From positions 1 through 64,000 of IMG/VR virus record IMGVR_UViG_3300023223_000769: DNA of 64,000 nt; one strand, given 5' to 3'. Both the position numbers and the translations under genes were made by a program. Source of the stretch: a virus. The notes under the pieces were generated by a model. It saw nothing but the letters and a program-made list of their open reading frames with translations. It ran no database searches and was not told where the DNA came from. Below are positions 102-46,584 of the stretch, one piece after another (the stretch's first letter is position 1; every line of letters begins with the position of its first letter).

Positions 102-117
102 TGGCACGGTACTTGCT
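102..117 (+). promoter_or_regulatory. sigma-54-type (-24/-12) promoter 1
   Basis: TGGCACG (102-108) and TTGCT (113-117) put the invariant GG (103-104) and GC (115-116) exactly ten bases apart, a full match to the RpoN consensus. The same 19-base block recurs at 11878. Predicted start of transcription is about 128, just before the first small gene. An activator site upstream cannot be judged because the window begins here. Confidence 0.8.
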
Positions 118-7292: not shown

Positions 7293-7856
7293 ATGGAAGC
7301 AATAGAAACGAAAAAAGTTAGAGGGTATACAATCGAGATCCACCAGGATGAAGATGCCGAGTCTCCGAGAGAGTGTAGTACGTTTGGTACAATGTTTTGT
7401 ACTCATAGACGGTACAATCTTGGTGATAAACAGATAGGGTCAATGGCTAAAGGAGAATTTGACAAACTCATTAATCGTAAAGACGTAAAGTATCTGCCTC
7501 TGTACCTGTACGATCATTCGGGCCTTACCATGAGTACGAGTCCGTTTAGTTGTCCATGGGATTCGGGCCAGGTCGGGGTCATCCTTGCTACGCACGAAGA
7601 TATTCGTAAAGAGTTCGGGCCACAGGGTAGGGCCATGACGCATATATCTAAAAAGGCCATTTCAAGTGCCTTCAAATTGATGCGTCAGGAAGTGGAAGTG
7701 TACGATGCATTTCTCCGAGGTAACGTGTATGGATACGTGATCCTGGATAAGAAAGGTGAGACTATGGATTCATGTTGGGGTTTTATTTGTGTCGATGGCA
7801 AGTTGGATTACGTCTATGAGGCGGCAATGGAAAATATACCAAAGGGGAAAGTATGA
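7293..7856 (+). CDS. unknown phage protein, DEDAESPRE family
   Basis: 187 aa. IEIHQDEDAESPRE followed by FGTMFCTHRRYNLGD is a signature I recognise from a widespread phage protein family without a known function. Three aromatic-rich beta segments follow. Begins one base after the previous stop and overlaps the next gene by an ATGA. Confidence 0.7.
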   Translation: MEAIETKKVRGYTIEIHQDEDAESPRECSTFGTMFCTHRRYNLGDKQIGSMAKGEFDKLINRKDVKYLPLYLYDHSGLTMSTSPFSCPWDSGQVGVILATHEDIRKEFGPQGRAMTHISKKAISSAFKLMRQEVEVYDAFLRGNVYGYVILDKKGETMDSCWGFICVDGKLDYVYEAAMENIPKGKV

Positions 7857-8544: not shown

Positions 8545-8748
8545 ATGCTTACAGGTGACTTACCGAGAAGCTTTTTTGATGAGCCGGGGAATGCAGTAGC
8601 GAGAGTTAACTTAAAAAAGTTACAAGCTATCATGATGCATTATGGCGAGACTTTAACGGTCAAAAATATTAGGTATCACATTCTCCATAAGCAGTTATGT
8701 CCAGGAGTTTTTGAGATAACGTTAACCACTAGGGTTTCCAGAGTTTGA
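8545..8748 (+). CDS. unknown 67-aa protein
   Basis: Follows GAAGGGGTC. Residues 30-60 resemble the end of the previous gene product. Last gene of the operon that begins at 1981. Confidence 0.55.
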   Translation: MLTGDLPRSFFDEPGNAVARVNLKKLQAIMMHYGETLTVKNIRYHILHKQLCPGVFEITLTTRVSRV

Positions 8749-8767
8749 CATCAAATGACAAATTATG

Positions 8768-8800
8768 GGTGCCAAAATGCGGTACTTGCATCGAGGCACC
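8768..8800 (+). promoter_or_regulatory. inverted repeat upstream of promoter 3
   Basis: GGTGCC (8768-8773) and GGCACC (8795-8800) are inverted copies 21 bp apart, centred about 41 bp upstream of the -24 element. Candidate activator site or the end of the preceding transcript; inference only. Between them, CGGTACTTGCATC resembles a degenerate -12 half. Confidence 0.35.
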
Positions 8801-8823
8801 TAATAAACTCAAGGCTTTTTTCT

Positions 8824-8839
8824 TGGCATGGACCTTGCG
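8824..8839 (+). promoter_or_regulatory. sigma-54-type promoter 3
   Basis: TGGCATG-GACC-TTGCG: GG 8825-8826 and GC 8837-8838 ten bases apart. With the T-tract before it, 27 of 28 bases match promoter 2. Predicted start is near 8850, where no gene but a long hairpin-rich RNA begins. Confidence 0.8.
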
Positions 8840-8849
8840 TTAGTAAAAG

Positions 8850-9520
8850 GCAAGCTCGTCATCGAGTATGTCATGTGATAATAAGACATTGCATGGCTAA
8901 GGGGCGAGTGATTGACAGCTATGCTGTCGCCTACGGTCTAGGATAGAGCCTTTAAAAGGGGTATCCTGCTCGTTGAGATAGGAGTCCAGAATTGGAATCC
9001 GTGGATGCTTGGCCTCTCTAACACCAGGCCCTAGGCGAGAGCATAGTTGAGAATCCAGACTGCACTTTAAAATGGGTTGCGGATCATGCACTAGGAGCTA
9101 TAGAGCCTGTCGTATCCAGAGAGGGACCGACCCTCAGACAGGAGATCACTCTAGTAGCGAAACGGCATAAAGACTGTAACCATTCAGGCTAGTGACGGAC
9201 CCACCACGAGTTTTCTCGTGGCACTGGACTAGATAACGGCTGAAAATCACCTCTGTATCAGGGGCCGAGTCAGTTAGGTTGGTTGGAGGTTCTAGATTCA
9301 GTGGGGTGCAGTGTGGATTTTTACGGGGGAGATGGTCTGATACGGGGCCAGAATATGAATGAGGAAAGCAATGAGTAGTACTCTCCTTGGGAGAAGAAAG
9401 TTGTTAGTATTCTCCGATTATACAAGTCGGATAAGGAAGAAAAATCGTTCTGGCGATAAAGTACTTTTCATACCCGGATTATTCAGGTTCGATTCCTGAT
9501 TCCCTCATCAGTTTTATTTT
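8850..9520 (+). ncRNA. candidate large structured non-coding RNA
   Basis: About 670 bases with no credible ORF, starting at the predicted sigma-54 start and ending with a T-rich run (9512-9520). Stems visible: CTCG/CGAG 8855-8866; GACAGC/GCTGTC 8914-8928; GGATA/TATCC 8941-8966; ATGCT/AGCAT 9005-9044 enclosing GGCCT/AGGCC; CTAGgAG/CTCTAG 9091-9154 enclosing CCTGTC/GACAGG and GAGGG/CCCTC; CTAGT/ACTAG 9189-9232 enclosing CCACGAG/CTCGTGG. The 3' part (9361-9507) is tRNA-like. Size, ornateness and phage setting recall the GOLLD and ROOL classes, but I cannot test membership. Confidence 0.6.
9361..9507 (+). other. tRNA-like 3' domain of the large RNA
   Basis: TCAGG-TTCGATT-CCTGA (9483-9499) is a standard T-arm. 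The next seven bases, TTCCCTC, pair with GAGGAAA (9361-9367) with one mismatch. Between them are four small hairpins (GAGTAGTACTC, TCTCC/GGAGA, TCCGA/TCGGA, ATCG/CGAT) instead of D- and anticodon arms. The end reads ATCA, not CCA. No tag ORF was found, so it is not an ordinary tmRNA. Confidence 0.45.
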
Positions 9521-9536
9521 ATAGGAAGGAGTAGCT

Positions 9537-9677
9537 ATGGAGAATTTAGAAATTTTGATTAAGCAAATTCGAAAAGAAGTAGCGTTAGATATTGCTCAAG
9601 ATTTTTTGGCACAACTGAGTGAGAATGAACTTGCGGAATTGGCATTACAATATAATCAGATGATCGGAGATAATTAA
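9537..9677 (+). CDS. unknown 46-aa helical protein
   Basis: SD AAGGAG. Leucine/glutamate-rich helix throughout (LAQLSENELAELALQ), possibly oligomerising. First gene after the structured RNA. Confidence 0.55.
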   Translation: MENLEILIKQIRKEVALDIAQDFLAQLSENELAELALQYNQMIGDN

Positions 9678-11877: not shown

Positions 11878-11893
11878 TGGCACGGTACTTGCT
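11878..11893 (+). promoter_or_regulatory. sigma-54-type promoter 4
   Basis: TGGCACG-GTAC-TTGCT, a perfect -24/-12 match: GG 11879-11880 and GC 11891-11892 ten bases apart. Identical to promoter 1 over 19 bases. Predicted start about 11904. Confidence 0.85.
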
Positions 11894-23980: not shown

Positions 23981-25144
23981 ATGGAGCTATTTACAGCTTC
24001 GAATCAATGGGCATCTCGCCCAAGTGACGAAAGATTTTCCAACCTGGAAGATCTTTATAACCAGTGTGCGGAATATAGGATAAGGGCAAAAGAAAAGACA
24101 GTAGATTTTGGTGATCTACGTGTCAATGCCGATAACGGTGAGGTCGTAATCACAGGTAAGCAGAATCTTCCTGCGAAAATGACTCATTGGGCATTCGGTC
24201 AGTTGTGTACAAAGCTTGGCGCACCTGGATCTTATCTCCGGGATTTACCTGCTACTTTGGCTGCTCAGAATATTAATTATGGGTTAGCTAAAGGTTTGTA
24301 CAAAGAGAATGGGGATGAGAAGGAAGCGAGTTTGCTTCTCCATCGTATGGCAGACAATGTTATGCTTAGTGCCATAACAAGTCCTAAGTATTCTCGCATT
24401 TGGAACTCGCAGGTGGTTACAGAGGTCAGGGGCCTCACAGAGTTTGGTTGGAGGGTGCCTCCGGCAAGACCTGCATTCGGAAAGGTGGTTGGAGCTAGAC
24501 CGGCTACGGCTGAAGACGTGTTGAACGATAGTGGTTTTGGTTTGTCGGTCAACATAGGTGATATGATTGCTCCGGCTGGCTTGTATGCTAGTGACCATGA
24601 TCTTTTTATTTTCATGGTTAATGAGAAATTTAGAATCAACGATGGATCGAATGATGGTTTGTCTCGTGGCTTCTTTGTCGAGAATAGCGAAGTGGGTGCT
24701 GCGAGTTTGAAGGTTCTTAGTTTTCTCTATAAGCATGTTTGCGGTAATCACATTGTATGGGATGCATCCGGTGTACAAGAACTTAGGATTCCCCATATCG
24801 GTGATGCTAACGAGAGATACCAGGGAGAGATAGTGTCAGAGCTTCAACGGTATGCCGAATCATCTGCCCAAGAGACAGAGCAAGCGATTCGGGTTAGTCA
24901 GAATTTTCAGATAGAGGTTGATAAGGATAAGGTTGTGGATTTTCTTTTTGGAAAAAAGATCCTTACCAAAAGACGTGCAACGGAAGCATTTGAGGATGCC
25001 GAAACGCATCCAGAAGATGGTTCTCCACGGTCTGCCTGGGGAATGGCCCAGGCAATTACTCGCTTGTCTCAGCAAAGTCCCTATGCTGACGAGAGAGTGA
25101 AGATGGATCGTGCGGCTGCAAAGGTACTAACTATTGCTCAGTAG
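23981..25144 (+). CDS. DUF932 family protein
   Basis: 387 aa. Strong SD AAGGAGG; the upstream ATG at 23921 would lie in the leader. LPAKMTHWAFGQLCTKLG, the HRMADNVMLSAITSPKY stretch, and a C-terminal helical region fit the DUF932/TIGR03299 phage-plasmid family. Function is unknown. It has a promoter and terminator of its own, so it is probably expressed on its own schedule. Confidence 0.75.
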   Translation: MELFTASNQWASRPSDERFSNLEDLYNQCAEYRIRAKEKTVDFGDLRVNADNGEVVITGKQNLPAKMTHWAFGQLCTKLGAPGSYLRDLPATLAAQNINYGLAKGLYKENGDEKEASLLLHRMADNVMLSAITSPKYSRIWNSQVVTEVRGLTEFGWRVPPARPAFGKVVGARPATAEDVLNDSGFGLSVNIGDMIAPAGLYASDHDLFIFMVNEKFRINDGSNDGLSRGFFVENSEVGAASLKVLSFLYKHVCGNHIVWDASGVQELRIPHIGDANERYQGEIVSELQRYAESSAQETEQAIRVSQNFQIEVDKDKVVDFLFGKKILTKRRATEAFEDAETHPEDGSPRSAWGMAQAITRLSQQSPYADERVKMDRAAAKVLTIAQ

Positions 25145-25162
25145 TACCCTTGCCTAATTGGT

Positions 25163-25195
25163 GGACCCTCCGGTGATCTCCTCCCCGGAGGGTCC
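25163..25195 (+). terminator. terminator after the DUF932 gene
   Basis: GGACCCTCCGG (25163-25173) and CCGGAGGGTCC (25185-25195) form a perfect eleven-base stem 18 bases after the stop. The tail is only weakly U-rich (GATGTTGT). Confidence 0.65.
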
Positions 25196-25221
25196 GATGT
25201 TGTCATAGAAAGGAATCTATA

Positions 25222-29154: not shown

Positions 29155-30234
29155 ATGCTTCGAAATGAAAAAGGATTTCTACTGATTGTCACAATTCATC
29201 TTTTGGCGATTATTTTATTCCTAGGCAGTGCGGCCTTGGTTCTTACTCGTATCGATCTTAAGATTACGGGTAACCACAAAACACGCACCACTGCCTTTTG
29301 GATAGCGGAAGCTGCTACACAGTACGCTAGGACTGCGTATGCTTCGTCTACTCTTGATGGTGGAGTTGTATTTACATGGAATAGTTCGGGGTTGCTTTAT
29401 CCTAGCTCTACGGGACTAGTAACGATAACCCCCGATGCTGTAGATCCAGATTTAGGTATAATTTCATCTACAGCTACTTATAGAGGTTCTACGACTACAG
29501 TAGAGGTAGGTTTCAAGAGGAATCTGCCTACGTTTGCAGGTGTGTTAGGCGGTGTTACAGCTAATGGACCGATAGAGGTTAATGGAACATTAGATATAGA
29601 TGGACGTGATCATGATTTAAACTGTAACGTAACCGGTACTCCTGGTGTCATGGGCATATATACTAATGCTACCTTTGGTCAAAGTGGTAATGCTGACGTT
29701 GGAGGCCACGCCTCCGGGACCGATTATGTACCGTCTAATCCAGGAGATCCGGCTGTAATTACTCAAGGTGGGACAGAGGCTACCTCTACGCCTGATGCAG
29801 CTATAGGTATGGATGAAGGTACTCTTAAGTGGCTGGCGCAGAGTGGTATAGGCGGTGGTCAGTATGTGACTGATCCTAATAATTTGACTTTACCTTTGCA
29901 GGGTATCACATATGTTGAGCTAGGCCCCGGTGAGGTTTGGCAATCATCGAATATGTTGACTGATGGTTCTGGTGTTTTGGTTGTGCATAATGCAACCACT
30001 AATGCGATTTTAGAAAATACGAATGGTGGAACATTCACAGGGTTGGTTATTACCGATGATATTGTCCATTTACACAACGAGATCGTAGGTGCCTTAGTTA
30101 CACTAACGCCTAATCCATCAAATGGTAATGTGCTAGGCAACGGCACCGGTTCTGTATGTTTTAGTAGTATAGCTTTTGGAGGCATAGATATTCTGGAAGA
30201 TATTGCAGAGACTTCGTGGAAGGAAGATATGTAA
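29155..30234 (+). CDS. PilX/GspK-like minor pilin
   Basis: 359 aa. MLRNEKG-FLLIVTI is a prepilin leader with cleavage after Gly7; the mature helix runs to about residue 29 and is followed by LKITGNHKTRTTAFWIAEAA, the PilX N-terminal signature. No Glu at +5, as in PilX and GspK. The rest is beta-rich, Gly/Thr/Asn-rich and fits an exposed minor pilin. SD AGGAG. A pilin gene in a lytic-type phage genome is unusual. Confidence 0.8.
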   Translation: MLRNEKGFLLIVTIHLLAIILFLGSAALVLTRIDLKITGNHKTRTTAFWIAEAATQYARTAYASSTLDGGVVFTWNSSGLLYPSSTGLVTITPDAVDPDLGIISSTATYRGSTTTVEVGFKRNLPTFAGVLGGVTANGPIEVNGTLDIDGRDHDLNCNVTGTPGVMGIYTNATFGQSGNADVGGHASGTDYVPSNPGDPAVITQGGTEATSTPDAAIGMDEGTLKWLAQSGIGGGQYVTDPNNLTLPLQGITYVELGPGEVWQSSNMLTDGSGVLVVHNATTNAILENTNGGTFTGLVITDDIVHLHNEIVGALVTLTPNPSNGNVLGNGTGSVCFSSIAFGGIDILEDIAETSWKEDM

Positions 30235-30597: not shown

Positions 30598-30801
30598 GAG
30601 GACAAACCTGATCCGCAGCAACAAGTAACTTACTATGTTTATAAACAGAGTAGCGTGACTACTATAAAAGCATATGGCTTTAAGGTTATAGAGGGGGCGT
30701 TGGTACTTACAGATAGAGATGGCGATATTATCCGAGTGTTTGCGTCTGGTGTGTGGAAAGAGATTCTACTGGAAGGAAAGAATAATGATACAGGCTATTA
30801 A
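30598..30801 (+). pseudogene. ORF without a start codon after a perfect SD
   Basis: In frame after the TAG of the PilV-like gene lies 67 open codons reading EDKPDPQQQVTYYVYKQSSV and later GALVLTDRDGDIIRVFASG-W. This matches a phage small-protein layout (YxVY ... GALxxxDxDGxIxxxFAxGxW). AGGAGG overlaps the stop, but no ATG, GTG or TTG follows at a useful distance; CCT stands where a start would be. Decayed start, base error, or TAG readthrough. Confidence 0.5.
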
Positions 30802-30952
30802 ATGTTTACTTGATTATCACGGCAAGACAGTGACAAAGGAATATCTTGGATTTATGGATTTGTACGATATGGAAGTGTGTGAGTTTTGTGAGAAACCGAC
30901 TACCGGAAAACAAATTTACGAAAGACTAGATAAATTAGAAGGAATACGTTTT

Positions 30953-31333
30953 ATGAATAACAAAGGCTTTACACTTATCGAGTTGTTAGTTGTTATTGCA
31001 ATTATTGGGATACTTGCGGCAATCGCCATTCCCCAATTTATGTCATACAGTCACCGGGGTTTTGATGCTGACGTAAGATCGAATGTAAAGAATATGATCT
31101 TGGCGCAAGAAACCTATTTTGTAGACGTAGATACATATGCCAGTGGTACCGGTACATCTCCGGTATTTACCAGTAGAGGTTTTAGGTTGAGTCCAAATGT
31201 AAATATTGTGTCAACCAACTTTTCTACGTTCTTTACTGTTACGGCGAATGCTATAAAAGGTTGTTCTCCTGGTACCGGGGTTTGGACCTATACTAGTGCA
31301 ACCGGCCAGCATTCAGGAAGCAGATGTAATTAG
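30953..31333 (+). CDS. PilA-like major type IV pilin
   Basis: 126 aa. MNNKG-FTLIELLVVIAIIG, then ILAAIAIPQF: cleavage after Gly5, Glu at +5, full hydrophobic N-helix. SHRGFDADVRSNVKNMILAQ and QETYFVDVDTYASG resemble pilins of Deltaproteobacteria. Two C-terminal Cys (GCSP and RCN) can form the pilin D-loop disulfide. ATG 30953 follows AAGGAATACG. The frame is open back to ATG 30785, which would add 56 residues of different character (FCEKP zinc-like); that part is probably a separate gene that lost its stop. Confidence 0.85.
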   Translation: MNNKGFTLIELLVVIAIIGILAAIAIPQFMSYSHRGFDADVRSNVKNMILAQETYFVDVDTYASGTGTSPVFTSRGFRLSPNVNIVSTNFSTFFTVTANAIKGCSPGTGVWTYTSATGQHSGSRCN

Positions 31334-46434: not shown

Positions 46435-46440
46435 AAAAAA

Positions 46441-46577
46441 TCTGCTGCGGTGTGGTGGGGACACACTGAGGGTTCAAGTTACAACGGCCCATGAGTACCA
46501 TGAACGGCGAAAGCTTAGTAGGCGAAGAGTGGGCAACGGACGCAACGTAACAAGTTGGTTCAAATCCAACCAGCAGA
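46441..46577 (+). other. tRNA-like RNA with large interior arm, no CCA
   Basis: TCTGCTG pairs with CAGCAGA; GTTGG-TTCAAAT-CCAAC is a normal T-arm. In place of D- and anticodon arms are CGGTGTG/CACACTG (7-base loop) and a long arm closed by GTTAC/GTAAC and GCCCA/TGGGC, with a GCGAAAGC tetraloop inside. No CCA and no anticodon. Resembles 43954-44062 and 9361-9507 in plan. Confidence 0.5.
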
Positions 46578-46584
46578 TTAAAAT

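What the first reader, a model, noticed from the sequence alone, without database searches (positions are those of the whole stretch)
8850..9520. Large ornate non-coding RNA starting at a sigma-54 promoter
About 670 bases have no credible ORF but carry at least eight good stems, several in tiers, and end with a T-arm/acceptor and a U-rich run. Length, multi-helix design and phage/tRNA context resemble GOLLD and ROOL RNAs, large RNAs of unknown function found in phages. It could be a new or divergent member.
Basis: partly seen in the sequence, partly recalled or inferred. Interest (0 to 1): 0.85.

Follow-up and report, generated by a model that had tools for sequence, protein, structure and literature searches.

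The report
Phage structured RNA with tRNA-like end
A tRNA-rich phage carries a roughly 660-base stretch that codes for no protein, starts at a sigma-54-type promoter, folds into long stems and ends in a tRNA-like arm; it is not a member of the known ROOL or GOLLD RNA families, and it resembles at its end a long-known but unexplained RNA of phage T4.

Summary
The observation mostly holds. Window 8749-9536 is the longest ORF-free stretch inside the contig. It is preceded by an exact -24/-12 (sigma-54) motif at 8824-8838, one of four in the first 12 kb, all on the + strand. It folds better than shuffles (z about -4), but one of 40 ordinary windows of the same genome does better, and no homologue was found, so covariation is untested. 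The interpretation "GOLLD/ROOL member" fails: the ROOL model finds its known copy at 130 bits and nothing here even at E<=10. GOLLD also gives nothing, though without a positive control. There is no recognisable intrinsic terminator. The 3' end does carry a perfect tRNA T-arm (9483-9499). Only one other T-arm in the window lies outside a called tRNA: 46554-46570, closed by a perfect 9-bp stem in a ~141-nt element inside the tRNA array. That design matches T4 rnaC (species 1 RNA), whose acceptor and T-stem I show to covary in six phages. Best reading: a sigma-54-driven, phage-encoded large structured RNA whose tRNA-like end directs 3' processing. The main rival is a structured mRNA leader.

The parts
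8811..8838 (+). sigma-54-type promoter: AAGGCTTTTTTCTTGGCATGGACCTTGC; -24/-12 core TGGCATGGACCTTGC at 8824-8838; predicted transcription start about 8850
   Evidence: Exact match to TGGCAYRNNNNTTGC; 28-nt repeat 96% identical at 1912-1939. Start site inferred from the usual 12-nt distance.
8850..9513 (+). predicted structured RNA (extent inferred: promoter start to last base of the closing helix)
   Evidence: ORF-free; fold z -3.96 for 8850-9519; helix list
8854..8909 (+). 5' hairpin domain (8854-8860/8903-8909 enclosing 8870-8879/8888-8897)
   Evidence: Pair probabilities 0.85 and 0.71
8910..9513 (+). candidate closing helix P1 GATTGA 8910-8915 / TCAGTT 9508-9513
   Evidence: Probability 0.54 only
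8916..9049 (+). P2 domain: 8916-8939/9026-9049, 22 pairs interrupted by two single mismatches
   Evidence: Probabilities 0.97-1.00; score 14 against a maximum of 13 in 240 shuffles
9050..9321 (+). P3 domain: 9050-9057/9314-9321 and 9059-9067/9304-9312 (17 pairs, one G.G mismatch), holding 9106-9111/9137-9142, 9121-9125/9131-9135, 9204-9210/9215-9221, 9222-9233/9291-9303 and others
   Evidence: Probabilities 0.88-1.00 for the named helices
9325..9507 (+). tRNA-like 3' domain: acceptor-like stem GGGGGAG 9325-9331/TTCCCTC 9500-9506, hairpin 9333-9350, long middle arm, T-arm, then A9507
   Evidence: Acceptor stem probability 0.83; T-arm plus acceptor costs 2 kcal/mol over the free fold; the acceptor alone is not significant
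9483..9499 (+). canonical T-arm TCAGG-TTCGATT-CCTGA
   Evidence: All but two T-arms of this form in the window lie in called tRNAs; 0.15 expected per shuffled window
9510..9521 (+). U-rich run AGTTTTATTTTA, not recognised as an intrinsic terminator
46439..46579 (+). second tRNA-like element in the tRNA array: AATCTGCTG 46439-46447 / CAGCAGATT 46571-46579, hairpin 46448-46468, T-arm GTTGG-TTCAAAT-CCAAC 46554-46570, no CCA
   Evidence: not called by ARAGORN or Rfam

Best explanation
Window 8850 to about 9513 encodes a phage RNA of about 660 nt that is not translated. Host RNA polymerase with sigma-54 starts it at 8824-8838 (inferred). The RNA folds into tightly packed domains: a 5' hairpin, P2, P3 and a tRNA-like 3' domain, meeting with linkers of 0 to 3 nt. 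The 3' domain stacks a 7-bp acceptor-like stem on a canonical T-arm, the minimal substrate shape of RNase P and tRNA 3' processing. I propose that the tRNA-like end is cut by host tRNA-maturation enzymes. That would free a stable RNA from the downstream mRNA, and possibly split it at 9324/9325 into a ~475-nt structured RNA and a ~183-nt tRNA-like RNA comparable to T4 rnaC. The mature RNA would act as a structural or scaffold RNA during infection, in the manner proposed for ROOL and GOLLD but without shared ancestry shown. Shown: the promoter motif, lack of coding, the T-arm, absence of ROOL. Predicted only: the fold. Inferred: transcription, processing and role.
For: Four exact sigma-54-type sites in order on one strand, one just upstream of the RNA. 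Longest internal ORF-free stretch, GC 47% against 41% for the genome. No coding signal. Fold z -3.96 and one helix beyond all shuffles. T-arm far above chance, and a second T-arm element of the same design in the same phage. T4 rnaC, a proven stable phage RNA (northern blot, PMC9697503), has the same acceptor plus T-arm end without CCA, with covariation.
Against: No homologue in 50,697 phages, in plasmids, or by the patterns tried in IMG/VR, so no covariation test. Some coding windows of this genome fold as well as or better than this one. The acceptor partner is not significant alone, and the free fold prefers pairs that break the T-arm by about 2 kcal/mol. No terminator was found, so a leader of the downstream genes is equally transcribable. 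Host and transcript data are lacking.
Confidence: 0.42

Rival explanations
1. Structured 5' leader of the sigma-54-driven mRNA that carries the small genes from 9537 onward; the stems protect the message or control elongation or translation, and no separate RNA accumulates.
For: No terminator before 9537; the next gene follows at once with a good ribosome-binding site; the other three sigma-54-type sites each head a run of small genes.
Against: The other three promoters lack such a leader (first start codons within tens of bases to about 200 bases). A 690-nt leader with a canonical T-arm at its end is unusual. The ribosome-binding site lies outside the structure.
Confidence: 0.3
2. Only the last ~183 nt (9325-9507) is a functional tRNA-like stable RNA of the T4 rnaC kind; the upstream ~475 nt is a leader or spacer.
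For: Complete acceptor, hairpin, arm and T-arm unit; sister element 46439-46579 of similar design; T4 rnaC precedent.
Against: The most significant helix (P2) lies in the upstream part; the acceptor of this element is weak.
Confidence: 0.15
3. Decayed DNA: a degenerate tRNA (ARAGORN at relaxed settings reads tRNA-Leu GAG with a 102-nt insert at 9325-9507) next to non-functional sequence.
For: Relaxed ARAGORN call; Rfam tRNA at only 14.6 bits.
Against: The same relaxed setting gives two spurious calls on the other strand; the best helix exceeds all shuffles; phage genomes rarely keep 790 nt of dead DNA (general knowledge).
Confidence: 0.1
4. Divergent member of ROOL or GOLLD beyond the reach of their covariance models.
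For: Similar length, phage origin, ornate predicted fold, tRNAs elsewhere in the genome.
Against: No match at E<=10 with ROOL while its known copy scores 130 bits; none for GOLLD; no T-arm-like element in the fetched ROOL locus.
Confidence: 0.03

Closest known systems
T4 rnaC (species 1 RNA) of Tevenvirinae
   Same: Phage-encoded non-coding RNA; canonical T-arm stacked on an acceptor-like stem at the 3' end; expanded middle instead of an anticodon arm; no encoded CCA
   Different: 139 nt, in the tRNA cluster, late expression in T4 (PMC9697503); no sequence similarity; the window RNA is about five times longer and outside the array. The 141-nt element 46439-46579 is closer in size and place.
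ROOL RNA (RF03087)
   Same: 500-600 nt, phage or prophage, multi-helix, unknown function
   Different: No covariance-model match; no T-arm found in the one ROOL locus examined
GOLLD RNA (RF02032)
   Same: Large ornate phage RNA, often near tRNAs, tRNAs sometimes inside its linker (PMC12286853)
   Different: No covariance-model match
MALAT1/mascRNA 3'-end maturation (from general knowledge)
   Same: A tRNA-like module at the 3' end of a long RNA could set its end through RNase P and RNase Z
   Different: Human nuclear RNA; analogy of mechanism only, untested here

Membership tests
ROOL (RF03087) | Match to the family covariance model | tested here: not met
   No match at E<=10; positive control pMP118 130.4 bits, E 1e-29
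GOLLD (RF02032) | Match to the family covariance model (conserved 3' half) | tested here: not met
   No match at E<=10; no known GOLLD copy was at hand as positive control
ROOL / GOLLD | Forms a multimeric RNA cage | not testable with these tools
   Needs cryo-EM or mass photometry
tRNA | Passes ARAGORN default or the Rfam gathering score | tested here: not met
   No call; 14.6 bits against 29 needed
T4 rnaC-type tRNA-like RNA | Canonical T-arm outside any tRNA | tested here: met
   9483-9499; 0.15 expected per shuffled window
T4 rnaC-type tRNA-like RNA | Acceptor-like stem stacked on the T-arm | tested here: inconclusive
   GGGGGAG/TTCCCTC present but a partner of this quality is found in 23% of shuffles; met for 46439-46579 (0.8% for 7 bp without G-U)
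T4 rnaC-type tRNA-like RNA | Sequence homology to rnaC | tested here: not met
   No BLASTN match of the RNA in the phage collection, which holds T4
T4 rnaC-type tRNA-like RNA | Stable transcript during infection | not testable with these tools
   No expression data for this phage
Group I / group II intron | Match to intron core models | tested here: not met
   No match at E<=10 in the region
sigma-54 promoter | -24/-12 elements TGGCAY and TTGC with correct spacing | tested here: met
   8824-8838 exact, four sites in the window
sigma-54 promoter | Dependence on RpoN and an enhancer-binding activator | not testable with these tools
   Host unknown; no activator identified

The most novel reading that the evidence does not exclude
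A new class of large phage RNA, switched on through host sigma-54, whose 3' end is made by host tRNA-processing enzymes acting on a built-in tRNA-like module. The same phage would carry a second, smaller RNA of this design, and T4 rnaC would be a distant functional analogue.
Probability: 0.2. Interest if true: 0.8.

Novelty: new variant of a known kind. Interest (0 to 1): 0.5.

Why it matters
Large phage RNAs such as ROOL and GOLLD, and the T4 stable RNAs C and D, have no known function. A third kind of large phage RNA, with an identifiable promoter and a tRNA-like end, would give a testable handle on how such RNAs are made. The covariation shown here for T4 rnaC supports treating acceptor plus T-arm ends as a design feature of phage RNAs rather than as broken tRNAs.

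Tried and rejected
Rfam at gathering score and at E<=10: only chance hits and a weak tRNA. BLASTN of the RNA in phages and plasmids: nothing credible. IMG/VR scans with terminase, DNA polymerase, a joined query of two early proteins, the T-arm 24-mer, both promoter cores and an A-rich 16-mer: one 8.3-kb relative by terminase (77% identity) that lacks the region; pattern hits at chance level with no similarity beyond the pattern. Genome-contig scans with terminase and promoter: nothing. Group I intron or tRNA with intron: no Rfam match; the ARAGORN intron reading appears only at relaxed settings that also give spurious hits. tmRNA: none at default settings. Hidden ORF 9371-9499: rejected on codon score. 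RF01998 was searched by mistake for GOLLD (it is a group II model); the correct accession RF02032 was used. The two T-arm elements of the window share no sequence similarity.

Full report
What the window is. The window is nearly all of a 65,339-base IMG/VR virus contig with 26 tRNA genes, most of them in an array at 42.6-47.5 kb. It encodes RtcB, an RNA ligase, a DNA ligase, DnaB-like helicase, primase, RecA and other phage proteins. Its terminase is at best about 24-30% identical, over part of its length, to the matches listed from public phages, and the only close relative found is an 8.3-kb fragment. The lineage is therefore almost unsampled, which limits every comparative test below.

The observation. 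Between the stop at 8748 and the start at 9537 there is no credible gene. Six-frame reading gives only short frames. The single one with a plausible ribosome-binding site (9371-9499, 42 aa) has a codon score of -0.096; 24 small genes of the same region score 0.02 to 0.39, and spurious frames average -0.23. GC is 47% against 41% for the genome.

The promoter. TGGCATGGACCTTGC at 8824-8838 matches the sigma-54 consensus. The exact pattern TGGCAYRNNNNTTGC occurs four times, at 102, 1925, 8824 and 11878, all on the + strand; with one mismatch 11 sites are found against 3.05 expected, and no shuffle reaches 11. The sites come in two near-identical pairs, and 1912-1939 and 8811-8838 are 96% identical over 28 nt. 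I take this as good evidence of a real promoter set. Dependence on RpoN is inferred.

The fold. The 670-nt z-score is -3.96 against 60 shuffles, but 40 other windows of the genome average -0.91 with sd 1.53, and one coding window reaches -4.55. The best helix, 8916-8939/9026-9049, is beyond all 240 shuffles, although two other places in the genome have one as good. Predicted helices P1 (8910-8915/9508-9513, probability 0.54), P2, P3 (9050-9067/9304-9321) and the acceptor-like stem (9325-9331/9500-9506) meet with linkers of 0, 0, 3 and 1 nt. This is suggestive and no more; a single sequence cannot prove a structure.

The 3' end. A perfect T-arm, TCAGG-TTCGATT-CCTGA, lies at 9483-9499. T-arms of this form are expected 0.15 times per shuffled window, and two are found outside called tRNAs. 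The T-arm is followed directly by TTCCCTC and A. The only 7-nt partner within 8700-9482 is GGGGGAG at 9325, with two G-U pairs; shuffled sequence offers such a partner in 23% of cases, so the acceptor is plausible but not established. The free fold is about 2 kcal/mol better than the one with T-arm and acceptor. No intrinsic terminator is recognised. Standard tRNA tests fail.

A second element and a precedent. The other orphan T-arm (46554-46570) lies in the tRNA array and is closed by a perfect 9-bp stem, 46439-46447/46571-46579, with a hairpin behind the 5' strand. Nearly all called tRNAs of this phage encode CCA; neither element does. At 141 nt in a tRNA cluster it recalls T4 rnaC (139 nt). 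I fetched rnaC and five relatives. It ends in a T-arm stacked on an acceptor-like stem. In the alignment the acceptor pair 7-143 changes between G-C and A-U, and the T-stem pair 124-136 appears as G-C, U-A and A-U; 98% of cells are paired, against 33-53% when the partners are slid, and five cells carry double changes. RNAalifold finds 20 of 47 pairs with compensatory changes. Rfam has no family that matches it above its threshold. RNAC is a real transcript of unknown role (PMC9697503, PMC3014915). So a non-tRNA phage RNA with an acceptor plus T-arm end is a known kind of object, though not one I found described in these terms; the literature search was limited.

Not ROOL, not GOLLD. ROOL finds its known copy in pMP118 at 130 bits and nothing in this contig at E<=10. 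GOLLD gives nothing, but I had no positive control. Kinship to either is therefore not supported. Functional likeness remains open, because the functions of ROOL and GOLLD are unknown (PMC12286853, PMC5643018).

Mechanism. I favour a sigma-54-started large RNA whose tRNA-like end is cut by tRNA-maturation enzymes, leaving a stable RNA separate from the downstream genes. Every step after the DNA anatomy is inferred. A structured leader of the downstream mRNA is the main rival and cannot be excluded without transcript data.

Noticed in passing
window 102-116, 1925-1939, 8824-8838, 11878-11892: Four exact sigma-54-type promoters on one strand in the first 12 kb of a phage, in two sequence pairs. 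Each has an inverted repeat centred roughly 53-79 nt upstream of the -12 element (by eye), as if activator sites.
   Followed up: partly
window 46439-46579: 141-nt tRNA-like element with a perfect T-arm and 9-bp closing stem in the tRNA array, missed by ARAGORN and Rfam; similar in size, place and design to T4 rnaC.
   Followed up: partly
L026:1409-1547 (T4 rnaC) and alignment A2: T4 species 1 RNA shows covariation in acceptor-like stem, T-stem and inner arms across six Tevenvirinae; no Rfam family matches it.
   Followed up: partly
window 30719-31333 and 29155-30234: Type IV pilin-like protein with N-methylation motif and a PilX-like protein encoded by the phage; unusual cargo that may point to a type IV pilus-bearing host.
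   Followed up: no
window 25001-25200: Strongest local folding signal of the window (z -6.1 over 200 nt) at the end of the DUF932 gene.
   Followed up: no
window 7293-7856: Conserved phage protein of unknown function (phrog_6186, E 4e-34) about 1 kb upstream of the RNA.
   Followed up: no
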